A program made the position numbers and the translations under genes. Of a stretch of DNA of 64,000 bases, positions 27,590 to 60,458 are shown in pieces. The notes under the pieces were generated by a model. The model did no database searches. It was given only the letters and a program-made list of their open reading frames with translations, and was not told the DNA's origin. Origin of the DNA: Prostheceraeus crozeri (Eukaryota > Platyhelminthes > Polycladida > Euryleptidae); contig CAJQUW010014401.1 in the NCBI GenBank assembly GCA_907163375.1, positions 62,001 through 126,000 on the forward strand, in the 5' to 3' direction. Each line of letters starts with the position of its first letter. Within the stretch, counting starts at the first letter, position 1.

Positions 27590-27879
27590 ATAGGTAAGTC
27601 ACATTGTTTGGCAAGTTTTTTCAATTTGCGATTACAGCGATCGCTGACATACTTCAGTTTACATGCGACGTTCTTTTGACTGGTGTTCCTACATGTATGT
27701 TTACTTTTATTTTTCTGTTTAATTTTGGAGATATCGCTAGAGGAAATCGCTCTCTACAGTGAATTTTACATCATCAGAACTCTTCTGGTCATTTAAACCA
27801 CAAGTGGTTTGTCAAGAGCCATCACTCGGGTAAATCCCTCAACAAAAATAGTTGGATGCCGAATCATATTAAAACTAAC
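27590..27879 (-). repeat. Left flank copy of a Penelope-related segment
   Basis: 27593-27735 matches the reverse complement of 44390-44515 at roughly 85-90%, then diverges before the arm begins. On the right side the same segment is the upstream part of a Penelope-like relic. So both borders of the large element abut inverted copies of the same retroelement stretch. Confidence 0.6.
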
Positions 27880-27952
27880 AGTAGTAAGTAAATCTACACC
27901 ACTGGACCGCGCAAGATGGCCGCCGTCGACCGACCTCCCCCCCCTCCTGTCA

Positions 27953-27974
27953 GACTAGGGCGTCGGCCCTAGTC
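27953..27974. repeat. Hairpin near left tip
   Basis: GACTAGGGC, loop GTCG, GCCCTAGTC: a perfect 9-bp stem about 70 bp from the arm tip, between C-tracts. The right arm has the same hairpin near 44166-44187. Confidence 0.85.
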
Positions 27975-29050
27975 CGCCACCTGACTGCTTCGAGTCCGAC
28001 TCCCCCCCCTCTGGAACGACGGCGTAGCGAGAGGTTGTTCGTGGTGCGCTCTCCAGGTTGGCGTGATGTGCCGGCCAGGTTGGCGTGGTGTGCCGGCCAG
28101 GTTGGAAGGGTGGAATTTCGGTGCGAGACCCCTCCCATCGTGTTTCTCGTCAAAAGTTGGGTTACCAAAATTTTTTCACCTGCCCCCCCCCTCGGCAGCG
28201 ATCTTCTAATTTTGGTTCTAGTGGATGGATTTTGTCTTATAGATACTCATTTGAAAGAGGAGAAAAAACTGCTCAATGACATTTTTGTTGCGAGTCAATC
28301 GGATCAGCCGCTCAAAAGTTAGAGCTGTTACAAGATTTCACGTCGGACCTCACCTGAAAAAATCCTAAGTGTCAGAGTGACTTTGTATGGGAAAATTTTT
28401 TTTCCAAAGTGTCGAATTTCGACCTGGGACCCTGACCAAAGTTTGTTTCATCAAATTTCACCGACCCCCCCTCGGCAGCGATCTTCTAATTTTGGTTCTA
28501 GTGGATGGATTTTGTCTTATAGATACTCATTTGAAAGAGGAGAAAAAACTGCTCAATGACATTTTTGTTGCGAGTCAATCGAATCAGCCGTTCAAAAGTT
28601 AGAGCTGTTACAAGATTTTAGGTCAGACCTCAGATTTAACGAAAAAATCCGTGTCAGACTGACTTTGTATGGACAAAATTTTGAAAATTTTTCCAAAGTG
28701 TCGCATTTCGACCTGGGACCTTTACCAAAACATTTTTCATCAAATTTCTCCAAACGGTAGGGGGGTCAGTGAAAAGTGATGAAAAAAGTTTTGGTAAGGG
28801 TCCCAGATTGAAATTCGGAAGTTAAAAATTTTTCAAAATTTTCACCACACTGGAGCTCCCACACTTAGGAATTTTTTCACTTGTGGCATGTTACATGGCC
28901 ATGTGCTGACGCACCAACTTCCCTGGTCATATGAGAATGGTTCAGGTGTCATATGATAGAGAATGCTGAGACGAATCGTTTGCAACAAACCACATGTCGC
29001 TACGATGAATACTTTCGGAGATAGAGCCATTTTAAGTTTTCTTCTGAGCA

Positions 29051-29058
29051 TATATAAA
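29051..29058 (+). promoter_or_regulatory. TATA box of gene A (left arm)
   Basis: TATATAAA lies 41 bases before the leader exon donor at 29100. The equivalent in the right arm is 43088-43095 on the minus strand. Confidence 0.65.
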
Positions 29059-29099
29059 CCCCCGGCAACGTAAGTCTGATCACTTCATCGAAAGACGAG

Positions 29100-29780
29100 G
29101 TAAGCGACGGTCGTCGCTCTGAGCTCCCGATATCGGGTGTTTCAAAGGACTCTATTTTATGAAGTAGGCAAGCTATCTTCTTACTTCAAAGTTTGTGTGA
29201 TAGAGTTTGATTATGTCTTTACTACTGATAAAAATTTTTAAAAGTAGTATGAGTAGTAAAATGCGGATTTTTTTAAAAAATTCTTAATTTTCAGTTTTTT
29301 CAAAGTTTTAACATGTAGTCTAAGGTTTTCAAGTATGCTGAGTTCAAATCTGCTATCAGATTCTATCATTCCTTACTAAGTGTTGACATTATGTTGAATG
29401 TTGACTAAGTTGAATGTTGAATAAGTGTTGAATGATGACATTATGTTTTAGGCCGTATACTACATTCAAATCTGCTATCAGATTTGAAATTTAACTAAGT
29501 CTAAGGCAGCTTTGAGGGGTTAGATCCCAGCTACTGATCACTACCTTTGGCTCGGCGTTGCTGTTACCACTTCGGGGCAGTGACCATGATGTCTTCAGCT
29601 GTAAATAGCGGGTATCGGGGAAGATCTTTCACTTCCCCAGTGATCAGTACAAGGCCTTCGGGCTGTCGACGGGATCGAGTGCCCCTCACTACACTCAAAT
29701 CTATCATTCCTCACTAAGTGTTATGCTTTAGGGTGTATACTACATGATTCAAAACTTATACTAATTTCATTATCTTACAG
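29100..29780 (+). other. 5'UTR intron of gene A
   Basis: Donor GAG|GTAAGC and acceptor TTATCTTACAG bound a 681-base intron in the leader. The ATG of gene A follows 29 bases after the acceptor. The right arm has the same intron at 42366-43046, also 681 bases. A second donor-like GTAAGT at 29070 lies too close to the TATA box to be transcribed. Confidence 0.65.
29525..29690 (+). ncRNA. Candidate structured RNA inside the leader intron
   Basis: A GC-rich island in an AT-rich intron. TACTGATCACT (29532-29542) pairs with AGTGATCAGTA (29639-29649) in an 11-bp closing helix. Inside, GGGGAAG (29617-29623) pairs with CTTCCCC (29632-29638), directly abutting the closing helix, and GTTAC pairs with GTGAC around a CUUCGGGG-like loop. 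Downstream, GCC-UUCG-GGC (29654-29663) is a tetraloop hairpin. No known RNA family is recognised. The same structure is in the right arm (closing helix at 42497-42507 and 42604-42614). Confidence 0.45.
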
Positions 29781-29808
29781 TTAACGAGAAATCTCAGTAA
29801 CGGCAAAA

Positions 29809-31003
29809 ATGGTCAATAACGATAGAAACAAAAAATTTCACATCAAAATGTGTGTGTGCGGTCGGATCAACCGCCGAGACGGTCTCAAGGACCACATAAA
29901 GAAGGCAGGGACCGACCACATGGTTATCCTGAGTAGGGTTGCCTGTGTGAAGTGTAGGGTGTTGTTGGTTGTTGGGCAGGAGGCCGAGTTCTATCTGAGG
30001 CATGGTGAGTGTACAGGAGGGTTGGTGACCGATTTGAGATTTGTGGAGTTGATGAATGCTGAGAAGGAGCGAATGTTGGGGAAAGAGAAAGAGGCCAAGA
30101 ATGTTGTTGAGAATGCTAGTGGGAATGTTGTTGAGAATGCTAGTGGGAATGCTGTGGAGAATGAGGTAGAGAATGCTGTGGCCGGTTTGAAGGCTGAGAA
30201 GTGGCGGAAGAGAGTGTTTGAGAGTGATGATGAGGATGATGTGGATTTGGATAGGGAGCGAGTGAGGAAGCGTGTGAGGAAGTTGAGGTCTTCTTCGTCG
30301 GAGGTATCGAATATTGTCATTACCGACCCCCCGCAGAGCTCATCTTCCCCAATAGTGAAGGGTGGTGGGTTACGGAAGCAGTCGGCGCGGTGGGATGAGG
30401 ATATGGAGAAGAAGCATGTGTCTCAGCAAGCGGCACATGCTTTGTTGGTTGATCGATATGAAAGTTTGAAGAAGGTGAATGAGAGAACGTTGGTCGAGTT
30501 GAGTGAGCTGAAAATGTAAGGAGGTGGCGGATGAGAATATCCGTATGAGGCGTATTGTGAAAGAGTTGAAGGAGAATGTGCGAGTGTTGGAAGACGAGAA
30601 TGATGAGCGACAGAAGAGGACGAGTGCTGCAGAGAGGAGAATGGGAGAGGTAGAGTCGAAGTATGAGGAGTTGATGAAGGAGATGAGTGTATTGAGAGCG
30701 AGGAATGCTGAGTTGGAGAGGAGTGTGAGTAGGCAGGGTGATGAGAGAGAGTCGTTTGCGAAGTTGGAGCGCATGAGGAATGAATGGAATCGCTTGAATG
30801 AGGACAGAATGATTGAATTTCACAGCCCTATTCGGGATAACTATCTGGACGGTCGAGTCCTTGTGAATCAAAGTTTGGATGAGTCGATCATCTGCTATAG
30901 TGGCCACTCAAGTAAAAAATGCCTCCACGCCACTCTCTGTATGCGCGGGCATCTACATAAATTTTCAGTGAGGAAGCCCGCGAGACTACCCAAGGATGGC
31001 TAA
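29809..31003 (+). CDS. Gene A (left arm): zinc-module and coiled-coil protein, frame break
   Basis: ATG at 29809 follows the spliced leader. Frame 1 encodes 236 residues: a Cys/His-rich N-terminus (C15-x-C17, H29, C46-x2-C49, H65-x2-C68), an Asn/Glu-rich region with repeated VVENASGN, a basic RKRVRK patch and the start of a coiled coil. It stops at a TAA (30517-30519). The coiled coil continues at once in the +1 frame for 159 residues to a stop at 31001. The two parts clearly form one protein separated by a single-base shift next to an AAAA run. The break is present in both arms. The stop lies 4 bases before a good donor (31008), so a second intron (31008-31067) would sit in the 3'UTR. The family is unknown; a nucleic-acid-binding structural or regulatory role is a guess. 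Confidence 0.65.
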
Positions 31004-31007
31004 CTTG

Positions 31008-31067
31008 GTAAGTGAAAAGCAAATAAGATAGTATATCCTATTCTAATACATATCATTTTCATTGCAG
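31008..31067 (+). other. Short intron after gene A
   Basis: Donor TTG|GTAAGT and acceptor TTTCATTGCAG bound a 60-base intron. It joins the end of gene A to the first 140-bp module. Confidence 0.55.
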
Positions 31068-31092
31068 ACCTTTTCCCTGCCTTCACCACTCC

Positions 31093-31232
31093 CGAGAACC
31101 AACCAACGGCTCTCATAAGGGCCACCAAGGGGCAAGATTTGATAGAACCTCCTCGCGGTTTTCCCTGAGCAGTCTTCAGACTGGCGAATACTATCATTAT
31201 GTTGAATCTGCCATCAGTCAACTTGAACGTTG
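31093..31232 (+). repeat. 140-bp module, left copy 1
   Basis: First of three direct copies in this arm, all exactly 140 bp with no indels. It contains the hairpin GGCTCT-CATA-AGGGCC, where a T-G wobble keeps the stem. It lies in the 3' exon of gene A, just before the TATA box of gene B. Confidence 0.9.
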
Positions 31233-31248
31233 CGTCGCATTAGAGGGG

Positions 31249-31256
31249 TATATAAA
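31249..31256 (+). promoter_or_regulatory. TATA box of gene B (left arm)
   Basis: TATATAAA is 42 bases before the ATG at 31291, giving a leader of only about 10 bases. Confidence 0.65.
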
Positions 31257-31290
31257 AAACCACTACCTCTCATTTCGTTTCATTTCAATC

Positions 31291-31740
31291 ATGGAGACAC
31301 CAAACGCTGCAGTCAGCTCTCCTCGCGGACCGCAGTTAAGACCACGAAATTTATTTAATGAATTTGTTAGAATAGAGGAGCAAGACAGAGTCCACAACAA
31401 TCTGGCTCGGATTGGCAATGCGATGACAGCAAGTGTTGCCAATCCAATGGAATGGCGCTACATTCCACCCTCCACTCACATGCCAACTAGCATGGAAGTC
31501 GACACTGCTGAGGTTGAACGGTTTCGACTCTCTCTCTCAGCAGAATCGGTATGGAGTAAGATGGCTGATGACGAGCCCCGAGAACGAACCACCGGCCCTG
31601 ATAAGGGCCACCATGGGGCAAGATTTGATAGAACCTCCTCGCGGTTTTCCCTGGGCAGTCTTCAGACTGGTGAATACTATCATTATGTTGAATCTGCTAT
31701 CAGTCAACTTGAACGTTGTGCAGTCGATTGCTATCCTTGA
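31291..31740 (+). CDS. Gene B (left arm): 149-residue protein ending in the repeated module
   Basis: Residues 1-96 are unique, with a basic Pro-rich start and a PMEWRYIPPS motif. Residues 97-143 are the translation of the 140-bp module (RERTTGPDKGHHGARF...), followed by a short tail. The TATA box and ATG spacing support a real gene. The right-arm copy (40406-40855) differs by a few conservative changes. No family is recognised, and there are no membrane segments or signal peptide. Confidence 0.6.
   Translation: METPNAAVSSPRGPQLRPRNLFNEFVRIEEQDRVHNNLARIGNAMTASVANPMEWRYIPPSTHMPTSMEVDTAEVERFRLSLSAESVWSKMADDEPRERTTGPDKGHHGARFDRTSSRFSLGSLQTGEYYHYVESAISQLERCAVDCYP
31579..31718 (+). repeat. 140-bp module, left copy 2
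   Basis: The hairpin is GGCCCT-GATA-AGGGCC. This copy is read in frame as the C-terminus of gene B. Confidence 0.9.
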
Positions 31741-31765
31741 AGCATTCTGATTATGTTGAAAACCC

Positions 31766-31773
31766 TATATAAG
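31766..31773 (+). promoter_or_regulatory. TATA box of gene C (left arm)
   Basis: TATATAAG is 48 bases before the ATG at 31814. Confidence 0.6.
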
Positions 31774-31813
31774 CCAGAAGATTGCAGCGCTTCTCATTCA
31801 ATTTTAAGTCACG

Positions 31814-32053
31814 ATGGAAGCAACATCTCCTACCAACACCATTCCCGACTTCATCATCCTCGACGAGTGGGATGAAGAGGATGAGAAGGAGTGTGAGAAG
31901 AGGGGGAAGATCAAGAGGATCGTTTGGACGGATGAGGTGTGGACTCCTAATACCACCCGCATCCGAAAGGTGCCAGATGCACCACCACGGCTTAGGCGGT
32001 ACAGGGTATATGACAACCTAACTGTCATACCTATTGACTTTTCAAGTCAATAG
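31814..32053 (+). CDS. Gene C (left arm): acidic 79-residue protein
   Basis: Encodes an acidic N-terminus (DEWDEEDEKE) followed by a basic Arg-rich part. A TAG stops it just before module copy 3. In the right arm the same codon is TGG, so the protein there runs on into the module in frame. No family is recognised. Either the left copy lost the tail by one substitution or the right copy gained it. Confidence 0.55.
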   Translation: MEATSPTNTIPDFIILDEWDEEDEKECEKRGKIKRIVWTDEVWTPNTTRIRKVPDAPPRLRRYRVYDNLTVIPIDFSSQ

Positions 32054-32398
32054 TCAACTTGTCGCCGAGAACGAACCACCGGCCCTGACAAGGGCCACCA
32101 TGGGGCAAGACATGATAGAACCTCCACGCGGTTTGCCCTGGGCAGTCTTCAGACTGGCGAATACTATCATTAAGTTGAATCTGCTATCAGTCAACTTGAA
32201 CGTTGAAAATGAAGTTCGGTGTAATACTTCCTTTCGACGGGCGTTCCTGTAAAGGGCGGCGGTGAAACCGGTAGCTATGTATACCGCAAGGGACATTCGG
32301 CAATGGTCAATCTTGTTAAACCTCTCTCCGTCATGTTTGCAAGTGATTGCCTCTGTCTCAACGTAGTATGCATTCGCGCCAGGGTGACATTTAGCCAA
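32054..32398 (-). CDS. ORF E (left arm), 114 residues, uncertain
   Basis: Opposes genes A-C. Its last 45 codons are antisense to module copy 3, but the first 70 residues lie in unique sequence with several Cys and His. The same ORF is kept in the right arm. It may join ORF D through a putative intron between them (donor at the end of D), but the simplest junction does not keep frame. No family is recognised. Confidence 0.3.
   Translation of the reverse strand: MAKCHPGANAYYVETEAITCKHDGERFNKIDHCRMSLAVYIATGFTAALYRNARRKEVLHRTSFSTFKLTDSRFNLMIVFASLKTAQGKPRGGSIMSCPMVALVRAGGSFSATS
32066..32205 (+). repeat. 140-bp module, left copy 3
   Basis: The hairpin is GGCCCT-GACA-AGGGCC. The loop base differs from copy 2 while the stem is kept. 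It lies directly behind gene C. Confidence 0.9.
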
Positions 32399-32454
32399 CT
32401 GTCAAAGGTTGCCTTATAAACTTTCCATTGCATACGTTATGAGAACCATGAGTT

Positions 32455-32655
32455 CTACCTGTCTCTATCAATGAGACGAATTGATGAATGAAATGAAATG
32501 GGAGGACACTCACGCGCCACACGCAACATAACACACTTCTCTCTTCCGTAGTCTAACAAGCTCTTTACCCAAGGATCGCAGTCGATTGCTATCCCTGTAT
32601 CAGAAGTGTAAGCTATCTTAATTTTATTTAAAACTATTTCATCTACCATCATCAC
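32455..32655 (-). CDS. ORF D (left arm), 66 residues, uncertain
   Basis: Starts with three Met codons and ends at a TAG inside a donor-like AG|GTAGAA. It is conserved in the right arm with one substitution. Its codon content looks protein-like but nothing is recognised and no TATA box is visible. Confidence 0.3.
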   Translation of the reverse strand: MMMVDEIVLNKIKIAYTSDTGIAIDCDPWVKSLLDYGREKCVMLRVARECPPISFHSSIRLIDRDR

Positions 32656-32699
32656 CCATATGAAGTGTTATAAGATTTACAAGTTAGACTAAGCGTTCT

Positions 32700-33060
32700 A
32701 CTATTTGTAAATGAAATATGTGGTTTCAACAGTTAACAGATTAAAAATAAAGTTTCAATAGTGTGTACGTTAGAAATAAAGTTTTAGCTGCTTCGATATC
32801 AAAAACGAAGTTTCAAGAGTTTACAAGTTAAAAATAAAGTTTCAATAGTGTATGCGTTAGAAATAAATTTTTAGCTGTTTGTATATCAAAATAAAGTTTC
32901 AATAGTGTATGCGTTAGAAATAAAGTTTTAGCTGTTTGTATATCAAAATAAAGTTTCAAGAGTTTACAAGTTAGAAATAAAGTTTCAATAGTGTGTATGT
33001 TAGAAATAAAGGTATAACTGCTTGTAAAATAAGATCGCAAGATTTACTAGTTTACAAGTT
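32700..33060 (+). repeat. AATAAAGTTT minisatellite, left arm
   Basis: Repeats of the pattern GTTAGAAATAAAGTTTYA with variable spacers. The same family, inverted, fills 33640-35060 and 39060-39460. Confidence 0.85.
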
Positions 33061-33139
33061 AGACTTAGTGCAAATTAAAAATAAAATTTTAAATGTTCAC
33101 GAGTTAAAGCGTTGATGCAACGATGAACAATTAATAAGC

Positions 33140-33529
33140 GTTTTTTTGTTTCTCAAGTTCATTTGATTCTATCAAGTCAACGCGTTTGTCAAGTTTGATT
33201 ATATCAAGTCAGTACTATACACATTTGATTTACAAAACATGCTTTGAATACTCATACGATGAAGTTCTTACTTTCATTTTAAAACAACATTCCGATAAAA
33301 TGTTCAACTTACATTCTCAACTTTGTATAATACTAAGATATTTGATAATACAACCTAAGAGATTTTCAACTTAGATTTTTATTTACTTCGCTCAGTCTTT
33401 TTCGAAACGTATAAGATACAACCATAGTGTCACAAGACTCATGTGTGCGTTCATCGTAAACACATTAAGAACAAACCGCAATGATGATACTTCAAATATG
33501 TACAAAACTGAAATTTCAACAACGGAGTA
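33140..33529. other. Element centre, left unique stretch
   Basis: No gene recognised; AT-rich. Confidence 0.4.
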
Positions 33530-33680
33530 AAAGTTTGAGAGTATACACTCCTGGCAAACTAACTCATGAAGTAGCTTTGCTGTGATACATTTCTATCTGT
33601 AAACATGTGGTAATGTTAAAGTTAATCTAAAGCTTCTCAGCTTATTAATTGTTCATCATCGCATCAACGCTTTAACTTGT
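33530..33680 (+). repeat. Direct repeat holding the empty site of the nested Tc1
   Basis: Matches the sequence on both sides of the Tc1 element at 37556-38999 as one continuous stretch, with a single TA at 33594-33595. Confidence 0.88.
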
Positions 33681-35060
33681 AAACAGTTATAATTTTATTT
33701 TTAATTTACAAATAGTAGAACGCTTAGTCTAACTTACAAACTAGTAAATCTTATGATCTTATTTTACAAACAGTTATACCTTTCTTTCTAGCATATAAAC
33801 TGTTATACCTTTATTTCTAACATACAAGCAGCTAAAACTTTATTTCTAACATACAAACAGATAAACCTTTATTTCTAACGTACGCACTGTTGAAGCTTCA
33901 TTTTGTTTCTAACATATAAACAGATAAAACTTTATTTCAAACGTACACATTATTGAAACTTTATTTTTAATCTGTAAACTGTTGAAACTATATCTTTCAT
34001 TTACAAATAGTAGAACGCTCAGCCTAACTTCCAAAGTAGCAAATCTTGTGATCTTAATTTACAAACCGATTAAACTCTATTTCTAACATACACACTGTTG
34101 AAACTTTATTTTGAACTTGTAAACGGTTGAAACTTTATTTTATTTCTAACGCGCAAACGACTAAAACTTTATTTCTAACGTACACACTGTTGAAACTTCA
34201 TTTTTAATCTGTAAACTGTTGAAACTATATCTTTCGTTTACAAATAGTAGAACGCTTAGTCTAATTGCAAACTAGTAAATCTTTCAATCTCATTTTACAA
34301 ACAGATAAAACAGATAAAACTTTATTTCTAACGTACACACTGCTGAATCTTTATTTTTAATCTGTAAACTGTCGAAACTATATCTTTCGTTTACGAATAG
34401 TAGAACGCTTAGTCTAACTTACAAACTATTGAATCCCGCAATCGTATTTTTACAAACAGATATAACTTTATTTCTAACGTACATACTGTTGAAACTTTAT
34501 TTTTTAATCTGTAAACTGTTGAAACTATATCTTTCATTTACATATAGTAGAACGCTTAGTCTAACTTACAAACTATTAAATCCCGCAATCTTATTTTACA
34601 AACAGATATAACTTTATTTCTAACATACACACTGTTGAAACTTTATTTTTAACTTGTAAACTCTTGAAACTTTATTTTATTTCTAACATACAAACAGCTT
34701 AAACTTTATTTCTAACGTACACACTGTTGAAACTTTATTTTTAATCTGCAAACTGTTGAAACTATATCTTTCGTTTACAAATAGTAGAACGCTTAGTCTG
34801 ACTTGCAAACTAGTAAATCCTACAATCTCATTTTACAAACAGATAAAACTTTATTTCTAACGTACACACTGTTGAAACTTTATTTTTAACTTGTAAACTC
34901 TTGAAACATTATTTTATTTCTAACATACAAACAGCTTAAACTTTATTTCTAACACATGCACTATTTAAACTTTATTTTTAATCTGTAAACTGTTGAAACT
35001 ATATCTTTCATTTACAAATAATAGAACGCTTAGTCTACCTTGCAAACTAGTAAATCTTGT
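33640..35060 (+). repeat. Higher-order AT-rich satellite
   Basis: Repeats of roughly 190-200 bp are built from AACTTTATTTCTAACGTACA, TTGAAACTTTATTTTTAA and a TAGTAGAACGCTTAGTCTAA block. No coding potential. Confidence 0.88.
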
Positions 35061-35218
35061 TCGTCATCGAATCTAACTGTTTAAATCTTCATCATGGAAA
35101 TCAATGTTCCACAGTCATTTGAAAAAGATATGATCACCCTTCATCTAACCCATCCGTTGCATGAAAACAACAACTCTTCGCATAATAACATTTATTGAAT
35201 AACTGTAACAAGCATGCA

Positions 35219-35767
35219 TTACAAATCAATGGTTTGAAACAGATAGGATAGATACAGCTGGTAACTGTCATATAGCGAGCAATGATAACCATACAGGACT
35301 TTGGCAGTGTTGAGGTAAGGAGGAAAGAAGCATTGGTTATGAACGTAGCTACTACAACGAACAGACAAAATAGGAACACACAAATCCTTAAAACGTTTCG
35401 TGACTTCATGATAGTGTTGATTCACTCTGCTATCCCAAGGTGGGAGCAAAATATCATTAATGATTAGATTGGGAAATACTTTCCTCTCCTTACCAGGATT
35501 ATTACAAAAGATGCGTATAACATTGAAAGCAGCTAACCATCGTTTAAAGTCAATAAGAAGAGCAGTCTCACAAGAAAAGCCATAGTCTTGCAAATATTTC
35601 AGATTAAATCAATGAATGTGTTTTCTCCCCCATTGATCAACATTGGGATCACAGTTGGCATGTTGATGATAGACACTAACAATCTGATATGTCCAATTGT
35701 TCATAGCAATAGCACTGATCTCCTGTACAGGTTCACCCTCACAATCCATAAAAATGATGATAGAAGC
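35219..35767 (-). pseudogene. Probable RNase H-fold 3'-5' exonuclease relic
   Basis: Open frame after an acceptor-like TTTTAG at 35768. It starts with hydrophobic residues and MDCEGEP, where Asp and Glu fit the first metal-binding motif of DEDD exonucleases. A second motif-like region with HIH...NLKYL follows, and later a conserved-looking NNPGKER...LPPWDSR and a Cys-rich tail. One in-frame TGA (35609-35611) interrupts it. The exonuclease call rests on these motifs only. It lies in the same frame as the RING-like ORF just upstream, so both could be exons of one gene. Confidence 0.35.
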
Positions 35768-35800
35768 CTAAAACGGAAATTACACATCTAAGGAAGCGTT

Positions 35801-36058
35801 CTATAACATAACACAAAATGAAGAACTACATCGATGCTTTTCACGACAAAATACACAAATGATATGATGGCAACGAAGAAATAAAATGTATCTAATAAGA
35901 CCACGTCTACGACACTCAAAGCACATAAGCGAATTGTCATAGGGTAGAGTTAGGAAAGGATTAGCAATTCTCTTTCCTTGACTTGCGTTTGGAGGTAGCA
36001 TTCTTGTCCGACTTGCGCTTCGTACCACCCCCGTTAAGGATTTCGTCAATAATGTCAT
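35801..36058 (-). CDS. RING-like zinc ORF, 85 residues
   Basis: The C-terminal half contains CFEC, an 11-residue spacer, then CHHIICVFC and a further HRC...C. This spacing fits a RING or RING-like cross-brace, which usually acts in ubiquitin transfer. The N-terminal part overlaps the end of the ORF 35961-36575 in another frame, so this may be a downstream exon or an overlapping gene. Confidence 0.4.
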   Translation of the reverse strand: MTLLTKSLTGVVRSASRTRMLPPNASQGKRIANPFLTLPYDNSLMCFECRRRGLIRYILFLRCHHIICVFCREKHRCSSSFCVML

Positions 36059-37375
36059 CTACGCTGGGTGGCTTTGGAATGTATAGGATGGATTCAGTGT
36101 GTATCGAGAGAGAGGCTATTTTGTTATCCTTGTGCTGACCATAATATAGCCCATTCACTTTGAAAAGGATATCCCAAGTACCTTCTCCGAGCTCATCACA
36201 TCTGATGGGTATTGATTGATCTCCATCCTTTTTATAATAACTACACCAATGTGATAATGGTAGGCAAATTTGATTGCCATCCCAAATCTTTCTATAGGGA
36301 TTATCCTTTTCATCTATCGCCTTCCACTCTTGAGCAAGAGGAGTAGGAATGTCCATATTTAATGTCACGTACTCTTCAATAATGTCAAGTTGGTGGCGAA
36401 TGTACGGACTCACGGGGATCAGTATGTAGTCCCCATACTGATTGCTCAATATCTTCACATCAGTGGAAGGGAGCATTCCCGTTTGCAGTACTACGCTGTG
36501 ATCCTCATGACGCAAGACTTGTTTAAATTTACGCTGTAGCGGTGTAGGATTATATACCTTGGCTGTTTCTTCCACTGGCCTCAGTTGTAGATGATCTGAT
36601 TGTAGCGAACCTTGTAACGTCTGACCGCCATTTTGTCCTACTAGTGCAGCAGATGGAGTAGATGCCTGAAAATAAAAAAGATTCTATCAAGTTTACGTTC
36701 AAGGGAGGAGAGGGAGGAAAGTAGCGAATTACCATTTTAGTTCGATAATATAACAGGGATGTAGAGAGAGAGAATGTGCGTCCGTCACTTGTACGATTCA
36801 ACGATGGAATGATTCTCACTGTGGAAGGCTCTCTATTTTTAAAGGAATGCTTGATTCTCATTAGACAAAAATCCTCATTGGAGAATAGTATCAAGTTGAT
36901 TCCCACTCTCACCGATGCTTCATTCGCCAGCTAGCGCTCATCGTCTCCTTTCACCGTCTCTACTGTACAAGCTCTACTGTATTCTTCCGTTGATAGGTGT
37001 GGTGAAACACGGGTGGACAAATGTTGTGTGTCGTCACGCCATCGATAATAATACTCCAACAGTAGGCGACCATGCTTGAATACGCGCCTTGGATATTTCA
37101 GCAAAGTCTCATCAATCAATTTCCTACTTTGAGCCACACTCATGAATACAATGTAGCAGACAAGCTCGTTGTGGGGAAGGGTGTGGACATACACCAATAG
37201 TTGAATGTAGGTCGTAAGCATATCATCATTCATCATGAGTTGGAAGCCTATCACTGAGGGCAGCTCGACATACGTCCCTAGAGTCACCTAAACAATGTCC
37301 TCCATGCTCTGGGAAACTACCTGCGCCATCGGCTGAATCCATCCTCTCATCGTCAAAAGAATGTACATAGCTCAT
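35961..37375 (-). pseudogene. Unknown central gene, one intron, disrupted 5' part
   Basis: A TATA box lies at 37406-37413 on the minus strand, with an ATG at 37373-37375. The first frame runs into a stop near 37230. The next open frame (37287-36931) ends in TAG, and the same frame continues at once to 36731. There a GT donor (ATG|GTAATT) joins an acceptor TTTTCAG at 36667, entering the 3' ORF (to 35961) in frame. The 3' part (about 238 residues) has aromatic, beta-rich stretches and a Lys/Arg-rich tail resembling a nuclear localisation signal. The single TAG and the unresolved 5' junction suggest decay, read-through or an unseen intron. No family is recognised. Confidence 0.4.
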
Positions 37376-37405
37376 GCACTCCAACTCTCTCAGTGCTGTA
37401 GGCGT

Positions 37406-37413
37406 ATTTTATA
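37406..37413 (-). promoter_or_regulatory. TATA box of the central gene
   Basis: TATAAAAT on the minus strand lies 38 bases before the first ATG. Confidence 0.5.
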
Positions 37414-37555
37414 CCACCCACCCCTACGCTCCTCTGGTGTTAACTTTCGTTTAGCAAAAAAGTCGTCATGAAAAATCAACGACGGAGTAAAAGTTTGAGA
37501 TGATACACTCCTGGCAAACTAACTCATGAAGTAGCTTTGCTGTGATACATTTCTA

Positions 37556-38999
37556 CAGTCGCGGCAAATGAAATAAGACCACTGTGGAAATTATATATTT
37601 CTATAATAAATTTGACATATTTTGTTTTTTATTGCATATTTATTGTACAGTTCATCAATATTCTATCCATGGGACTAATTTGTACTAGAATAGGCAAAAT
37701 TAAAGGAATATCAATTCAATATTTCGTAGTACCCCCACGATTAGCGATGACAGAAGATAACCTGGAAGGCATCGAAGACACAAGTTTTAAGCACAGTTTA
37801 GGAGTAATTTCATGGGTCCAAACAAATAAAATCGCCTCCTTCAACTCACTAAGTGAACGTGGGGATTTCTCAGAAACTTTTTTCTTCATTACGGTCCATA
37901 AATTTTCTATTGGATTTAAATCGGCAGAATTTCCCGGCCAGGGAAGAACCGAAATTTGTTGATCATGAAACCACTGCTGACACTTTTTATCCACGTGGCA
38001 CGGTGCCGAGTCTTGTTGGAAAATATTAGTTTGATGAATCGTCATAAAGCAAGGTAATTTTCCATTCAATATCTTTAAATACTTCTCTGCGTTTAATCGT
38101 TCGTTTGGTTCCAAAAAGAAAAGAGGTCCACGACCATAGGCTGAAAAAGAAGCCCAGACCATGATAGATGGAGAATGTTTTACTTTTGGAATCACGAATT
38201 TCTCTTTGTAGCGTGCACCAGAAGGCCGACGAACTCGAGTTGCTTTTATACCAAATTGTTCAAAATTACTCTCGTCCGACCACATGACCTTCTTCCAATC
38301 TTCTATGGTCCACGAAACATGATCTCGTGCGAAATCTAGGCGACGTTTCTTCATCAACGATGTTAAACGAGGTTTACGATCGACTCTGTACGATTTCAAG
38401 TCAAATGATTTTAGACGATTTCGAACGGTCCTGATTGACACAGAAACACCATGAAGTTTCACCTGACATTGAATTTCTGTCGCAGGCAATAAAGGATCAG
38501 ATAAACACAATTTTCGAATCAATCGATCGTCACGAGGTTGAGTAATGCGCTGTCGTCCAGGATGAGAAGATTGGAAATGACCTTTCGTGAGAAAGGCTTG
38601 GACGGCTTGATGAACTGCGGTCTTTGAACGTTTCACTTTCCTTGCAATTACTCTTTCACTAAATCCACATTTATTATAAGTCACAATCTGTGCACGTTCC
38701 ACTGGTGTCAGCTCTTTTCGACGTCCCATCATGAAAAATGATAGTGAAATGAATTTGTTGTCACTCTTTCTTCCAATGTGATACAATTGTTATAATTTTA
38801 GACGCATGGGATTCCCAGGTCTATTTTTAGATTTGACTTAATAGGAAGGTAGACGAATGAATAATCCACTTGCATTTGTGTTGTTTTTGACGCGACAAAC
38901 AAGTTTACACTATAGATTCTCAGTCTTAATGTCAAACAATCAAAATATTCAAAAATATTCGTAAACTTCATGGTGGTCTTATTTCATTTGCCACGACTG
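37556..38999 (-). mobile_element. Nested Tc1-type transposon
   Basis: 1444 bp bounded by inverted ends CAGTCG(C/T)GGCAAATGAAAT and flanked by TA (37554-37555 and 39000-39001). The unoccupied version of the same sequence is present at 33530-33680 in this window and shows a single TA, which proves the insertion boundaries. Confidence 0.95.
37716..38786 (-). CDS. Tc1-type DD34E transposase, intact
   Basis: Uninterrupted 356-residue ORF; the likely start is the internal Met at the MGRRKELTP sequence, about residue 20. N-terminal paired-type helix-turn-helix regions precede a DDE core: WSDESNF, FQQDSAPCH and NSADLNPIENLW. It ends in ANRGGTTKY, typical of Tc1 transposases. Intact coding and clean ends suggest a recent insertion into the central part of the large element. 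Confidence 0.94.
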   Translation of the reverse strand: MYHIGRKSDNKFISLSFFMMGRRKELTPVERAQIVTYNKCGFSERVIARKVKRSKTAVHQAVQAFLTKGHFQSSHPGRQRITQPRDDRLIRKLCLSDPLLPATEIQCQVKLHGVSVSIRTVRNRLKSFDLKSYRVDRKPRLTSLMKKRRLDFARDHVSWTIEDWKKVMWSDESNFEQFGIKATRVRRPSGARYKEKFVIPKVKHSPSIMVWASFSAYGRGPLFFLEPNERLNAEKYLKILNGKLPCFMTIHQTNIFQQDSAPCHVDKKCQQWFHDQQISVLPWPGNSADLNPIENLWTVMKKKVSEKSPRSLSELKEAILFVWTHEITPKLCLKLVSSMPSRLSSVIANRGGTTKY

Positions 39000-39059
39000 T
39001 ATCTGTAAACATATGGTAATGTTAAAGTGAATCTAAAACTTTTCAGCTTATTAATTGTT

Positions 39060-39460
39060 CGTCGTTGCATCAACGCTTTAACTCGTGAACAGTTAAAATT
39101 TTATTTTTAATTTGCACTAAGTCTAACTTGTAAACTAGTAAATCTTGCGATCTTATTTTACAAGCAGTTATACCTTTATTTCTAACATGCACACTATTGA
39201 AACTTTATTTCTAACTTGTAAACTCTTCAAACTTCGTTTTTGATATACAAGCAGCTAAAACTTTATTTCTAACGTACACACTATTGAAACTTTATTTTTA
39301 ACTTGTAAACTGGTGAAACTTTATTTTTTATTTGCAAACAGCTAAAACTTTATTTCTAACGTACACACTATTGAAACTTTATTTTTAATCTGCAAACTGT
39401 TGAAACCACATCTTTCATTTACAAATAGTAGAACGCTTAGTCTAACTTGTAAATCTTATA
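39060..39460 (-). repeat. AATAAAGTTT minisatellite, right arm
   Basis: Inverted counterpart of 32700-33060. Confidence 0.85.
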
Positions 39461-39473
39461 ACACTTCAAATGG

Positions 39474-39674
39474 GTGATGATGGTAGATGAAATAGTTTTA
39501 AATAAAATTAAGATAGCTTACACTTCTGATACAGGGATAGCAATCGACTGCGATCCATGGGTAAAGAGCTTGTTAGACTACGGAAGAGAGAAGTGTGTTA
39601 TGTTGCATGTGGCGCGTGAGTGTCCTCCCATTTCATTTCATTCATCAATTCGTCTCATTGATAGAGACAGGTAG
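39474..39674 (+). CDS. ORF D (right arm), uncertain
   Basis: Copy of ORF D with one Arg-to-His change; see the left arm. Confidence 0.3.
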   Translation: MMMVDEIVLNKIKIAYTSDTGIAIDCDPWVKSLLDYGREKCVMLHVARECPPISFHSSIRLIDRDR

Positions 39675-39730
39675 AACTCATGGTTCTCATAACGTATGCA
39701 ATGGAAAGTTTATAAGGCAACCTTCGACAG

Positions 39731-40075
39731 TTGGCTAAATGTCACCCTGGCGCGAATGCATACTACGTTGAGACAGAGGCAATCACTTGCAAACATGACG
39801 CAGAGAGGTTTAACAAGATTGACCATTGCCGAATGTCCCTTGCGGTATACATAGCTACCGGTTTCACCGCCGCCCTTTACAGGAACGCCCGTCGAAAGGA
39901 AGTATTACACCGAACTTCATTTTCAACGTTCAAGTTGACTGATAGCAGATTCAACTTAATGATAGTATTCGCCAGTCCGAAGACTGCCCAGGGCAAACCG
40001 CGTGGAGGTTCTATCATGTCTTGCCCCATGGTGGCCCTTGTCAGGGCCGGTGGTTCGTTCTCGGCGACAAGTTGA
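39731..40075 (+). CDS. ORF E (right arm), uncertain
   Basis: Copy of ORF E with a few substitutions. Its 3' third is antisense to the 140-bp module. Confidence 0.3.
   Translation: MAKCHPGANAYYVETEAITCKHDAERFNKIDHCRMSLAVYIATGFTAALYRNARRKEVLHRTSFSTFKLTDSRFNLMIVFASPKTAQGKPRGGSIMSCPMVALVRAGGSFSATS
39924..40063 (-). repeat. 140-bp module, right copy 3
   Basis: Inverted counterpart of 32066-32205. It is read in frame as the tail of gene C here. Confidence 0.9.
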
Positions 40076-40315
40076 CCATTGACTTGAAAAGTCAATAGGT
40101 ATGACAGTTAGGTTGTCATATACCCTGTACCGCCTAAGCCGTGGTAGTGCATCTGGCACCTTTCGGATGCGGGTGGTATTAGGAGTCCACACCTCATCCG
40201 TCCAAACGATCCTCTTGATCTTCCCCCTCTTCTCACACTCCTTCTCATCCTCTTCATCCCACTCGTCGAGGATGATGAAGTCGGGAATGGTGTTGGTAGG
40301 AGATGTTGCTTCCAT
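39956..40315 (-). CDS. Gene C (right arm): 119 residues with module tail
   Basis: Same acidic/basic body as the left copy. TGG replaces the left-arm TAG, so the frame continues into the module to a TAA inside it. The module frame is the one used in gene B. This copy may show the ancestral full form. Confidence 0.55.
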   Translation of the reverse strand: MEATSPTNTIPDFIILDEWDEEDEKECEKRGKIKRIVWTDEVWTPNTTRIRKVPDALPRLRRYRVYDNLTVIPIDFSSQWSTCRRERTTGPDKGHHGARHDRTSTRFALGSLRTGEYYH

Positions 40316-40405
40316 CGTGACTTAAAATTGAATGAGAAGCGCTGCAATCTTCTGGCTTATATAGGGTTTTCAACAATGAATTGCTCAACAGCGAATCAGA
40401 ATGCT

Positions 40406-40855
40406 TCAAGGATAGCAATCGACTGCACAACGTTCAAGTTGACTGATAGCAGATTCAACATAATGATAGTATTCGCCAGTCTGAAGACTGCCCAGGGAAA
40501 ACCGCGAGGAGGTTCTATCAAATCTTGCCCCATGGTGGCCCTTATCAGGGCCGGTGGTTCGTTCTCGGGGCTCGTCATCAGCCATCTTACTCCATACCGA
40601 TTCTGCTGAGAGAGAGAGTCGAAACCGTTCAACCTCAGCAGTGTCGACTTCCATGCTAGTTGGCATGTGAGTGGAGGGTGGAATGTAGCGCCATTCCATT
40701 GGATCGGCAACACTTGCTGTCATCGCATTGCCAATCCGAGCAAGATTGTTGTGGACTCTGTCTTGCTCCTCTATTCTAGCAAATTCATTAAATAAATTTC
40801 GTGGTCTTAACTGCGGTCCGCGAGGAGAGCTGACTGCAGCGTTTGGTGTCTCCAT
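40406..40855 (-). CDS. Gene B (right arm)
   Basis: 149 residues as in the left arm, with Val-to-Ala and Asn-to-Asp changes. The TATA box is inverted at 40890-40897. The C-terminus is module-encoded. Confidence 0.6.
   Translation of the reverse strand: METPNAAVSSPRGPQLRPRNLFNEFARIEEQDRVHNNLARIGNAMTASVADPMEWRYIPPSTHMPTSMEVDTAEVERFRLSLSAESVWSKMADDEPRERTTGPDKGHHGARFDRTSSRFSLGSLQTGEYYHYVESAISQLERCAVDCYP
40428..40567 (-). repeat. 140-bp module, right copy 2
   Basis: Inverted counterpart of 31579-31718. Confidence 0.9.
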
Positions 40856-40913
40856 GATTGAAATGAAATGAAATGAGAGGTAGTGGTTTTTTATATACCC
40901 CTCTAATGCGACG

Positions 40914-41053
40914 CAACGTTCAAGTTGACTGATAGCAGATTCAACATAATGATAGTATTCGCCAGTCTGAAGACTGCTCAGGGAAAACCGCGAGGAGGTT
41001 CTATCAAATCTTGCCCCTTGGTGGCCCTTATGAGAGCCGTTGGTTGGTTCTCG
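40914..41053 (-). repeat. 140-bp module, right copy 1
   Basis: Inverted counterpart of 31093-31232, with the same wobble-paired hairpin. Confidence 0.9.
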
Positions 41054-41142
41054 GGAGTGGTGAAGGCAGGGAAAAGATCTGCAATGAAAATGATATGTAT
41101 TAGAATAGGATATACTATCTTATTTGCTTTTCACTTACCAAG

Positions 41143-42337
41143 TTAGCCATCCTTGGGTAGTCTCGCGGGCTTCCTCACTGAAAATTTATGTAGATGCCCG
41201 CGCATACAGAGAGTGGCGTGGAGGCATTTTTTACTTGAGTGGCCACTATAGCAGATGATCGACTCATCCAAACTTTGATTCACAAGGACTCGACCGTCCA
41301 GATAGTTATCCCGAATAGGGCTGTGAAATTCAATCATTCTGTCCTCATTCAAGCGATTCCATTCATTCCTCATGCGCTCCAACTTCGCAAACGACTCTCT
41401 CTCATCACCCTGCCTACTCACACTCCTCTCCAACTCAGCATTCCTCGCTCTCAATACACTCATCTCCTTCATCAACTCCTCATACTTCGACTCTACCTCT
41501 CCCATTCTCCTCTCTGCAGCACTCGTCCTCTTCTCTCGCTCATCATTCTCGTCTTCCAACACTCGCACATTCTCCTTCAACTCTTTCACAATACGCCTCA
41601 TACGGATATTCTCATCCGCCACCTCCTTACATTTTCAGCTCACTCAACTCGACCAACGTTCTCTCATTCACCTTCTTCAAACTTTCATATCGATCAACCA
41701 ACAAAGCATGTGCCGCTTGCTGAGACACATGCTTCTTCTCCATATCCTCATCCCACCGCGCCGACTGCTTCCGTAACCCACCACCCTTCACTATTGGGGA
41801 AGATGAGCTCTGCGGGGGGTCGGTAATGACAATATTCGATACCTCCGACGAAGAAGACCTCAACTTCCTCACACGCTTCCTCACTCGCTCCCTATCCAAA
41901 TCCACATCATCCTCATCATCACTCTCAAACACTCTCTTCCGCCACTTCTCAGCCTTCAAACCGGCCACAGCATTCTCTACCTCATTCTCCACAGCATTCC
42001 CACTAGCATTCTCAACAACATTCCCACTAGCATTCTCAACAACATTCTTGGCCTCTTTCTCTTTCCCCAACATTCGCTCCTTCTCAGCATTCATCAACTC
42101 CACAAATCTCAAATCGGTCACCAACCCTCCTGTACACTCACCATGCCTCAGATAGAACTCGGCCTCCTGCCCAACAACCAACAACACCCTACACGTCACA
42201 CAGGCAACCCTACTCAGGATAACCATGTGGTCGGTCCCTGCCTTCTTTATGTGGTCCTTGAGACCGTCTCGGCGGTTGATCCGACCGCACACACACATTT
42301 TGATGTGAAATTTTTTGTTTCTATCGTTATTGACCAT
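41143..42337 (-). CDS. Gene A (right arm), same frame break
   Basis: ORFs 42337-41627 and 41622-41143 repeat the left-arm arrangement, including the identical stop and one-base shift. It differs by a Lys-to-Thr change beside the second CxxC and a Gln-to-Glu change in the coiled coil. The leader intron is 42366-43046. Confidence 0.65.
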
Positions 42338-42459
42338 TTTTGCCGTTACTGAGATTTCTCGTTAACTGTAAGATAATGAAATTAGTATAAGTTTTGAATC
42401 ATGTAGTATACACCCTAAAGCATAACACTTAGTGAGGAATGATAGATTTGAGTGTAGTG

Positions 42460-42622
42460 AGGGGCACTCGATCCCGTCGACAGCCCGAAGGCCTTGTACT
42501 GATCACTGGGGAAGTGAAAGATCTTCCCCGATACCCGCTATTTACAGCTGAAGACATCATGGTCACTGCCCCGAAGTGGTAACAGCAACGCCGAGCCAAA
42601 GGTAGTGATCAGTAGCTGGGAT
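42460..42622 (-). ncRNA. Candidate structured RNA, right-arm copy
   Basis: Same helices as in 29525-29690, inside the leader intron of the right gene A. Confidence 0.42.
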
Positions 42623-44251
42623 CTAACCCCTCAAAGCTGCCTTAGACTTAGTTAAATTTCAAATCTGATAGCAGATTTGAATGTAGTATACGGCCTAAAA
42701 CATAATGTCATCATTCAACACTTATTCAACATTCAACTTAGTCAACATTCAACATAATGTCAACACTTAGTAAGGAATGATAGAATCTGATAGCAGATTT
42801 GAACTCAGCATACTTGAAAACCTTAGACTACATGTTAAAACTTTGAAAAAACTGAAAATTAAGAATTTTTTAAAAAAATCCGCATTTTACTACTCATACT
42901 ACTTTTAAAAATTTTTATCAGTAGTAAAGACATAATCAAACTCTATCACACAAACTTTGAAGTAAGAAGATAGCTTGCCTACTTCATAAAATAGAGTCCT
43001 TTGAAACACCCGATATCGGGAGCTCAGAGCGACGACCGTCGCTTACCTCGTCTTTCGATGAAGTGATCAGACTTACGTTGCCGGGGGTTTATATATGCTC
43101 AGAAGAAAACTTAAAATGGCTCTATCTCCGAAAGTATTCATCGTAGCGACATGTGGTTTGTTGCAAACGATTCGTCTCAGCATTCTCTATCATATGACAC
43201 CTGAACCATTCTCATATGACCAGGGAAGTTGGTGCGTCAGCACATGGCCATGTAACATGCCACAAGTGAAAAAATTCCTAAGTGTGGGAGCTCCAGTGTG
43301 GTGAAAATTTTGAAAAATTTTTAACTTCCGAATTTCAATCTGGGACCCTTACCAAAACTTTTTTCATCACTTTTCACTGACCCCCCTACCGTTTGGAGAA
43401 ATTTGATGAAAAATGTTTTGGTAAAGGTCCCAGGTCGAAATGCGACACTTTGGAAAAATTTTCAAAATTTTGTCCATGTCACTCTGACACGGACAGTCAA
43501 ATCTGAGGTCTGACCTAAAATCTTGTAACAGCTCTAACTTTTGAACGGCTGATTCGATTGACTCGCAACAAAAATGTCATTGAGCAGTTTTTTCTCCTCT
43601 TTCAAATGAGTATCTATAAGACAAAATCCATCCACTAGAACCAAAATTAGAAGATCGCTGCCGAGGGGGGGTCGGTGAAATTTGATGAAACAAACTTTGG
43701 TCAGGGTCCCAGGTCGAAATTCGACACTTTGGAAAAAAAATTTTCCCATACAAAGTCACTCTGACACTTAGGATTTTTTCAGGTGAGGTCCGACGTGAAA
43801 TCTTGTAACAGCTCTAACTTTTGAGCGGCTGATCCGATTGACTCGCAACAAAAATGTCATTGAGCAGTTTTTTCTCCTCTTTCAAATGAGTATCTATAAG
43901 ACAAAATCCATCCACTAGAACCAAAATTAGAAGATCGCTGCCGAGGGGGGGGGCAGGTGAAAAAATTTTGGTAACCCAACTTTTGACGAGAAACACGATG
44001 GGAGGGGTCTCGCACCGAAATTCCACCCTTCCAACCTGGCCGGCACACCACGCCAACCTGGCCGGCACACCACGTCAACCTGGAGAGTGCACCACGAACA
44101 ACCTCTCGCAACGCCGTCGGTCCAGAGGGGGGGGAGTCGGACTCGAAGCAACCAGGTGGCGGACTAGGGCCGACGCCCTAGTCTGACAGGAGGGGGGGGG
44201 AGGTCGGTCGACGGCGGCCATCTTGCGCGGTCCAGTGGTGTAGATTTACTT

Positions 44252-44936
44252 ACTACTACTAACTGCCCCAAAAATAGCATTAACTGCGTCACCAATCGGT
44301 TTTTAAGTAAATCAGAACAAAACGAATCTTTAAAAGCCCTCACCACCGCTTTAGGCAAAATGGTTTCTCCACCAGCGTTATCTCCAAAATTAAACAGAAA
44401 AATAAAAGCAAACATACATGTAGGAACGCCAGTCAAAAGAGCTTCGCATGTAAACTGAATTATTTCAGCGATCGCTGTAATCGCAAATTAAAAAAACTTG
44501 ACAAACAATGTGACTTACCTATTCGAATAGTTAATAGGCTAGGTCCTACTATATCCCAAGTCACCAACACTAAAAAGCAAGACAGAAAGCACGAGGATTG
44601 TACCATCTGCACTAAACTACCTAAAAGTGTTCTAGCTCTGACCGGTTTTTAATTTATGAATTGGCCTGCTTATTGTGTGGTGATTTCTACATCGGTCAAA
44701 CTAACTGACCGTTCACTAATAGGCATAAAGAACACCAGCGTGATGTCACCAATAAGAACAAGAAAAATGCTTTGTACAGTATGAGTACTTCTGGTAATTT
44801 CATGCAGGCGAGCACGTTCCGTCAATAGACGACCTGACCATAGATATCTTGGACAAAAGTGACAATGCCGTTGATGGCCGAATTAGTGAAGCTCGTCAAA
44901 TTGACAGATTAAGGCCCGCTATGAACCGCAAGTAAG
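44252..44936 (+). pseudogene. Penelope-like element relic with GIY-YIG endonuclease
   Basis: A decayed reading shows CTICTKLPKS (Cys pair), then CLLCGDFYIGQTN, the YIG box of the GIY-YIG nuclease, then RHKEHQRDV and an EHVPSIDDLTIDIL...RISEARQIDRLRP end before a stop. Together these are the C-terminal endonuclease of Penelope-like retroelements. Two stops and at least two frameshifts make it dead. An upstream open stretch (44252-44456) belongs to the linker before the endonuclease. It abuts the right tip of the large element. Confidence 0.8.
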
Positions 44937-47362: not shown

Positions 47363-47436
47363 GTGGCTCGTAGCTCAATTGGTTAGAGCACAGGTCTAGT
47401 TAACCTTGGTCGTAGGTTCGAATCCTACCAGCCGCA
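47363..47436 (+). tRNA. tRNA-Thr(AGT)-like, copy 1
   Basis: Cloverleaf: acceptor GTGGCTC/CAGCCGC (one C-C mismatch and one T-G), D stem GCTC/GAGC, anticodon loop CTAGTTA (anticodon AGT), T arm GTAGG-TTCGAAT-CCTAC. The A box TAGCTCAATTGG and perfect B box GGTTCGAATCC are present, and TTTT follows 5 bases later as a pol III stop. Three linker bases before the D stem and a mismatch at the top of the anticodon stem are odd for a working tRNA. Confidence 0.7.
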
Positions 47437-47659
47437 CATCTTTTGCATGGCAATCTGATCTATCGTGTATTTAATCTCATTGTTGTTAATTGCCTTCACG
47501 ACATGGCTTAAGATGCTTTGGTGGACAATCGATCCCCGCTACTTGCCTTAATGTCGGCGGTCACAATTGTGACGTGTTATTTATTCATGATTATTATTGC
47601 CTTGACAACTGATGTGTGGTGGTAAGGGTTTGATCCTGCAAATTGACAGAGTCGCGTAA

Positions 47660-48030: not shown

Positions 48031-48086
48031 CATCTTTTGCATGGCAATCTGATCTATCGTGTATTTAATTTCATTGTTGTTAATTG

Positions 48087-59292: not shown

Positions 59293-59344
59293 TGAACCAG
59301 CGACGTTGGAGCTAGAGGACGTGCAAGCATACCCTCTAACCACA

Positions 59345-60426: not shown

Positions 60427-60458
<32 letters not shown>

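What the first reader, a model, noticed from the sequence alone, without database searches (positions are those of the whole stretch)
27880..44260. Large element with 5.2-kb gene-bearing inverted arms and no recognisable mobility gene
The two arms carry identical sets of small TATA-driven genes, and the centre has further genes and satellites. DNA transposons rarely put genes inside the inverted repeats. Viruses with long terminal repeats do, but no polymerase or capsid is visible here. The arms differ at scattered bases, so this is not simply one read folded back. It could be an undescribed element class, an integrated virus-like genome or an inverted duplication.
Basis: partly seen in the sequence, partly recalled or inferred. 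Interest (0 to 1): 0.88.

Follow-up and report, generated by a model that had tools for sequence, protein, structure and literature searches.

The report
Non-autonomous Polinton with doubled left end
The 16.4-kb element is a stripped-down relative of Polintons (virus-like DNA transposons of animals and other eukaryotes) that carries a copy of the element's gene-bearing left end at both of its ends and no genes of its own for copying or inserting itself.

Summary
In detail: two inverted arms, 27880-33139 and 39046-44257 (51 substitutions in 5194 aligned sites), with sharp outer borders and a 6-bp target duplication ACTAAC. The border is a real mobile terminus, AGTAGTAAG..., counted 1170 times in the 2.05-Gb host genome at up to 3 mismatches (control 0). 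It is not a new class. In 15 of 20 fetched copies the same arm leads into a Polinton-type family-B DNA polymerase ORF. The one right end read from a gene-bearing copy has capsid-, ATPase- and integrase-like ORFs, then the homologue of this window's central genes, then only about 0.7 kb of terminal repeat. So the parent looks like a Polinton/Maverick with a short repeat. The window copy is a non-autonomous derivative: the left end stands at both ends round right-end genes, and none of 17 other Polinton ORF pieces is found in it. The transposase in the centre is a nested Tc1 passenger (37556-38999) with empty sites. The rearranged inner junction recurs at two other loci, and 10 contigs carry the central block as outward-facing pairs, so doubled-end forms spread, partly in a sister lineage. 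Origin by protein-primed replication, as in end-duplicated adenovirus genomes, is likeliest but inferred.

The parts
27874..27879 (.). left target-site duplication ACTAAC
   Evidence: identical to 44258-44263
27880..33139 (+). left arm = Polinton left end (terminus AGTAGTAAG...)
   Evidence: inverted match to 39046-44257; terminus shared with 24 other fetched places and counted 1170 times in the genome
28185..28751 (+). tandem ~280-bp repeat inside the arm, copy number varies between elements
29809..31003 (+). gene A/B: one ~400-aa gene (Cys-rich N-terminus, coiled coil) split by a frameshift into ORFs 29809-30519 and 30545-31003
   Evidence: continuous in P0001 and 397-410 aa in 8 of 20 copies; pooled dN/dS 0.15 and 0.30
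31291..31740 (+). ORF C, frame-disrupted form of an 88-aa ORF
   Evidence: dN/dS near 1 in both frames tried, so coding is not supported by it
31814..32053 (+). ORF D, 79 aa
   Evidence: pooled dN/dS 0.41 over 19 copies
32701..33139 (+). 29-bp satellite at inner end of left arm
33140..33508 (.). 369-bp stretch with no match in the fetched pieces L017-L041
33509..33654 (+). second copy of the centre's end and of its junction with the satellite; also an unoccupied Tc1 target
33640..35060 (.). inverted 29-bp satellite array
35100..37555 (-). right-end gene block (ORFs 35134-35409, 35801-36058, 35961-36476, 36550-36861, 36931-37236)
   Evidence: 35103-36909 matches the right end of the C1388 copy at 92%; 39 other genome hits at 96-97% among the 40 best scored
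37556..38999 (-). nested Tc1-type transposon, ORF 37716-38732, TA duplication 37554-37555 / 39000-39001
   Evidence: HTH_Tnp_Tc3_2 8.6e-16, DDE_3 3.4e-14; inverted ends; empty site in L019 and at 33594
39046..44257 (-). right arm = second copy of the Polinton left end, with the same broken A/B (41627-42337, 41143-41601), C (40406-40855) and a longer D ORF (39956-40315)
44258..44263 (.). right target-site duplication ACTAAC

Best explanation
The element is a non-autonomous derivative of a Polinton/Maverick family that is abundant in this genome. Read from pieces of different copies, a gene-bearing element runs: left terminus - arm genes A/B, C, D - gene E - PolB ... capsid-, integrase- and ATPase-like genes - right-end genes - about 0.7 kb of terminal repeat. 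The window copy has the left end (5.2 kb) at both termini, the right-end genes in the middle, and none of the core genes. It kept two good termini, was moved by integrase (and copied by PolB) supplied in trans by gene-bearing copies, and inserted as a unit, making the 6-bp duplication. The doubled end most likely arose on the free linear, protein-primed DNA, by a template switch or end copying during strand displacement through the satellite repeats, as in end-duplicated adenovirus genomes. Shown: homology, termini, duplication, missing genes, shared junctions. Inferred: trans-mobilisation, the replication step, any packaging.
For: Shared sharp terminus of the (AGT)2//(ACT)2 type and 6-bp duplication. 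Arm followed by a PolB-type ORF in 15 of 20 fetched copies; 7 of its 96 database relatives carry DNA_pol_B_2 PF03175. One right end with integrase (rve) fragments, chromodomain, ATPase-like ORF and a short repeat. The central block is the homologue of that right end. No tblastn trace of 17 other Polinton ORF pieces in 27880-44257. Both arms share the same frameshift, with 1 difference in 711 sites of A. The satellite/centre junction recurs at C11298 and on both sides of C1327. All 10 same-contig pairs among the 40 best centre hits face outward.
Against: Integrase and ATPase matches are below Pfam's cut-offs, and the capsid- and protease-like ORFs have no library match. Only one right end of a gene-bearing copy was read. 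The pair at C1327 has a divergent outer arm, and none of the 6 pair contigs numbered below C6231 is in the list of exact termini (sites with 1-3 mismatches were not listed), so the pairs belong at least partly to a sister lineage. No second locus with exactly this whole architecture was read end to end. A chromosomal origin of the doubled end is not excluded.
Confidence: 0.82

Rival explanations
1. The doubled end was made in the chromosome after insertion, by gene conversion or break-induced copying that started in the short terminal repeat and extended the left arm onto the right end.
For: Would also leave the 6-bp duplication intact and give near-identical arms.
Against: The same satellite/centre junction stands at C11298 and on both sides at C1327, so the rearranged form was itself copied to new sites; outward-facing pairs occur on 10 contigs. 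It could still have arisen once in a chromosome and then been mobilised.
Confidence: 0.13
2. A genuinely new class of element with long gene-bearing inverted repeats and an unknown mobility mechanism.
For: The window copy itself has no polymerase, integrase or capsid gene, and A-D have no library match above a curated cut-off (Pfam; PHROGs for A and C).
Against: Identical termini and arm lie on copies with a PolB-type ORF, and a copy with integrase- and capsid-like ORFs ends in the same terminus.
Confidence: 0.02
3. Two independent Polinton insertions, or an assembly fold, that happen to face each other.
For: Polinton copies are frequent (1170 termini).
Against: One 6-bp duplication flanks the outer ends; the arms differ at 51 scattered sites yet share one frameshift; no further terminus lies between the arms at up to 8 mismatches.
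Confidence: 0.03

Closest known systems
Polinton / Maverick (polintovirus, adintovirus) elements
   Same: (AGT)2//(ACT)2 ends, 6-bp target duplication, and in sister copies PolB, integrase-, ATPase- and capsid-like ORFs; 16.3-25.4 kb between termini in 14 of 15 same-contig pairs of exact termini
   Different: The window copy lacks the core genes and has 5.2-kb gene-bearing inverted ends; intact vertebrate Mavericks have 46-1447 bp, mean 402 (PMC8097293, passages)
End-duplicated defective adenovirus genomes (recalled; Hammarskjold and Winberg 1980 seen only as a reference-list title)
   Same: Linear protein-primed DNA in which the left end replaces the right end
   Different: Those are recalled as virion DNA; here the form is a genomic insertion and its junction recurs at several loci
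Foldback / Galileo-type long-repeat transposons
   Same: Long internally repetitive inverted ends (abstract start of PMC3573991 in the listing)
   Different: No P-type transposase among the 20 window ORFs scanned against Pfam; termini and duplication length fit Polintons
Tc1/mariner
   Same: Nested passenger 37556-38999 with TA duplication, inverted ends and DDE_3 domain
   Different: Does not account for the 16-kb element; absent from L019 at the same site

Membership tests
Polinton/Maverick | terminal motif 5'-(AGT)2//(ACT)2-3' (one of the two reported for vertebrate Mavericks) | tested here: met
   both termini begin AGTAGT; motif from PMC8097293 (passages)
Polinton/Maverick | 6-bp target-site duplication | tested here: met
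   ACTAAC on both sides; tested on 1 element, the only one with both flanks read
[quoted passage not shown]
   absent from the window copy; present as an ORF behind the same arm in 15 of 20 fetched copies, 7 of 96 relatives with PF03175. The window copy is therefore filed as a non-autonomous derivative, not as a complete Polinton; protein priming itself was not tested
Polinton/Maverick | retrovirus-like integrase | tested here: inconclusive
   absent in window; in L038 rve 0.0017 and rve_3 0.0033, below cut-off, plus Chromo 2.7e-5, just below its cut-off
Polinton/Maverick | capsid proteins, protease and packaging ATPase | tested here: inconclusive
   absent in window; ORFs in L038 in a row; ATPase Pox_A32 0.027 only; no match for capsid- or protease-like ORFs
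Polinton/Maverick | short terminal inverted repeats (46-1447 bp in intact vertebrate elements; a range, not a criterion) | tested here: not met
   5.2 kb in the window; about 0.7 kb at the one gene-bearing right end read
Tc1/mariner (nested element) | TA duplication, inverted ends, DDE transposase | tested here: met

The most novel reading that the evidence does not exclude
Doubled-left-end, near-palindromic Polintons form self-propagating satellite lineages: they lost polymerase, capsid and integrase, kept two left ends (origins and perhaps packaging signals), were rebuilt to a size near that of gene-bearing elements, and out-copied their parents by using the parents' proteins, the Polinton counterpart of defective interfering adenovirus genomes.
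Probability: 0.35. Interest if true: 0.72.

Novelty: new variant of a known kind. Interest (0 to 1): 0.5.

Why it matters
Polinton replication as free linear, protein-primed DNA is largely inferred from gene content. Insertions that carry two left ends and a single target duplication are the kind of product that such replication, and not cut-and-paste transposition, should leave. They would give a genomic record of the free form, and a natural case of a defective-interfering-like parasite of a Polinton. They also warn annotators that gene-bearing long inverted repeats without a mobility gene can be derivatives of known elements.

Tried and rejected
Rejected: the Tc1 transposase as the element's own mobility gene (TA-flanked, absent from L019 and from the window's own second copy of the target). 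Rejected: gene C as a 149-aa gene (20 of 20 copies show frameshift gaps against the window frame, dN/dS 1.03; the shared ORF is 88 aa, and its own dN/dS of 0.93 over 19 copies does not support selection either). My assumption that C414 is the same element without Tc1 failed: L041 holds gene E there (96% identity), so C414 is another two-armed copy of different make-up. Led nowhere: Pfam on A-D and central ORFs and PHROGs on A, C and the 171-aa central ORF, with no match above a cut-off; protein search with A (2 unnamed relatives) and with the central ORF (6 unnamed); viral-contig scans with A1, A2 and P0010 (0 confirmed of 255, 174 and 1 pattern matches); AlphaFold of the central protein (mean pLDDT 49, not searched further); PDB search with PolB and capsid-like pieces (0 hits). 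The integrase N-terminal piece hit homeodomains best (1.2e-5), perhaps a shared helix-turn-helix. Never answered: empty-site search with joined flanks, Tc1 copy search, genome-wide counts of arm, PolB and centre.

Paper searches for palindromic or non-autonomous Polintons: none of the listed titles and abstract starts (20 of 32, 12 of 44 and 3 of 3 papers) describes doubled-end Polintons; on end-duplicated adenoviruses listed no paper that does either. Read only as passages: PMC2836005, PMC8097293, PMC6431247, PMC4046053, PMC5033970. The library lacks most subscription papers, so this is no proof of novelty.
Full report
OBSERVATION. The inverted arms are real. BLAST of the window against itself gives 27880-33139 versus 44257-39046 at 97.25% over 5279 columns. 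MAFFT gives 51 substitutions over 5194 aligned sites and 5 gap runs, with almost none in ORF A (1 of 711) and most in the inner, satellite-rich end (28 of 1030).

BORDERS. The arm ends sharply at 27880 and 44257. Of 36 loci then held, 27 rows show the same terminus AGTAGTAAGTAAATC... (a few with substitutions); two are the window's own and two are one locus seen twice, which leaves 24 others. Their 300-bp flanks do not match one another; the only match among 26 flanks is between the window's own two, a 155-bp inverted repeat of the host. A genome-wide pattern count (up to 3 mismatches) gives 566 forward and 604 reverse sites and 0 for the reversed control. Among the exact sites listed (the list is cut at C6231), 15 contigs carry a forward site followed by a reverse one; 14 of 15 spacings lie between 16.3 and 25.4 kb, one is 37.8 kb, median 21.5 kb. 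The window's flanks read ...ACTAAC|element|ACTAAC..., a 6-bp target duplication. The (AGT)2//(ACT)2 end motif and perfect 6-bp duplications are what PMC8097293 used for vertebrate Mavericks, whose intact elements had terminal repeats of 46-1447 bp, mean 402 (passages).

WHAT THE ARM BELONGS TO. In 15 of 20 the arm leads into a long ORF with an endonuclease VII domain (PF02945, 3.2e-6) and, below cut-off, C2H2 fingers; I recognise this make-up as that of Polinton polymerases from recall. Its 96 database relatives include 7 with DNA_pol_B_2, PF03175; no PDB chain matched. The other five pieces are L019 (window-type centre), L026, L027, L034 and L036 (other content). A middle piece of another copy (L037) shows the rest of the polymerase frame with a GDTDS motif, further small genes and then the homologue of the window's central gene. 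The right end of a third copy (L038) carries ORFs that I read, by recall, as protease, capsid, minor capsid, integrase and ATPase; library support is rve 0.0017 and rve_3 0.0033, Chromo 2.7e-5 and Pox_A32 0.027, all below the curated cut-offs, and none for the capsid- or protease-like ORFs. It then has the homologue of window 35103-36909 (92%), and then the same terminus in reverse, with only about 700 bp of terminal repeat. One such right end was read, so the short repeat rests on one case; in addition C979, C3970 and C4871 have both termini mapped and only one long arm hit each, whose list was limited to 40.

ANATOMY OF THE WINDOW COPY. Order: left arm (27880-33139) - 369 bp unmatched - second copy of the centre's end (33509-33654) - inverted satellite - right-end gene block (35100-37555) - nested Tc1 (37556-38999) - satellite and right arm (39046-44257). 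tblastn of 18 Polinton ORF pieces against 27880-44257 finds only the central right-end gene (83%); PolB, the L037 genes, protease-, capsid-, integrase-, ATPase- and RING-like pieces and gene E give nothing at E 0.01. Genes A and B are one gene of 397-410 aa in 8 of 20 copies and in P0001; in the window both arms carry the same frameshift. Pooled pairwise dN/dS against the window is 0.15 (A, 20 copies), 0.30 (B, 20) and 0.41 (D, 19), which speaks for real genes; C is not supported (1.03; 0.93 for the 88-aa frame). These ratios pool pairs with one reference and are not corrected for the tree, and several copies are decayed (A has in-frame stops in 5 of 20).

NESTED TC1. The ORF 37716-38732 matches HTH_Tnp_Tc3_2 and DDE_3. 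The element is flanked by TA; the same site is empty in L019 and in the window's own second copy at 33594. It is a passenger. Its copy number was not obtained.

SPREAD OF THE REARRANGED FORM. The segment 36900-37470, absent from L037 and L038, is present in L019 (94%), and the junction 'centre end - satellite - arm' is present in L019 (C11298), in L039 and L040 (both sides of C1327) and twice in the window. One search scored the 40 best of 4947 candidates for 35100-37600: besides the window there are 39 hits at 96-97%; 35 of 39 stop exactly at the Tc1 insertion point. Ten contigs carry two hits, and all 10 pairs face outward, 2.6-9.0 kb apart; 19 other hits are single, and their partners, if any, may lie below the cut. 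Against a simple picture: the one pair read outward (C1327) has a divergent outer arm with a distant relative of A/B (23% identity over 156 columns, mostly coiled coil, E 1e-4 for one comparison), and none of the 6 pair contigs numbered below C6231 appears among the exact termini (sites with mismatches were not listed). The pairs thus belong at least partly to a sister lineage with other ends, and the window copy may be a hybrid. C414 is a further copy with two inverted arms, but of different make-up (gene E in its right half) and cut by the contig end.

MECHANISM. Shown: a molecule with two left ends and Polinton-type termini sits in the genome between 6-bp duplications, without core genes. 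Inferred: it inserted in that form, was moved in trans by gene-bearing copies, and the doubling arose on the free linear DNA during protein-primed strand-displacement replication, with the 29-bp satellites as the switching zone. Adenovirus is the nearest model: packaging there depends on a domain next to the left end, which also works near the right end (PMC5033970, passages), so two-left-ended genomes can remain packageable; that such defective adenoviruses occur is recalled, not read. Chromosomal gene conversion is the main rival and is disfavoured by the shared junctions at other loci.

VERDICT. A non-autonomous, doubled-end variant of a known kind of element. Interesting as a possible trace of Polinton replication, ordinary as an element class.

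Noticed in passing
47363-48664: Tandem array of tRNA-Thr(AGT) genes in 297-bp units, beside stretches at 46413-47349 and 48716-49572 that repeat 6826-8854 at about 98%
   Followed up: no
58313-60436: 303-bp satellite, 3.4 units in one direction then 2.2 in the other, forming a second palindrome
   Followed up: no
3422-5211: ORF 3761-4825(-) with DUF4817 and weak DDE_3 matches between 228-bp inverted ends at 98.7%: looks like a mariner-type element
   Followed up: partly
27590-27744 and 44368-44522: The host flanks themselves are a 155-bp inverted repeat (92.9%): the Polinton derivative probably sits inside a small palindromic repeat of about 550 bp
   Followed up: partly
2559-2638: 13 copies of GGTTAG, a telomere-like array inside the contig
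   Followed up: no
L036 7842 and L027 9119: A further Polinton terminus lies inside or next to another copy's repeat, suggesting nested insertions
   Followed up: no
31085-31233, 31577-31718, 32065-32205: A 141-bp block recurs after or at the end of each of the arm genes A/B, C and D; possibly a shared 3' signal
   Followed up: no
L039 3098-4198: 366-aa distant relative of gene A/B in a sister palindromic lineage: Cys-rich start and coiled coil, 23% identity
   Followed up: partly
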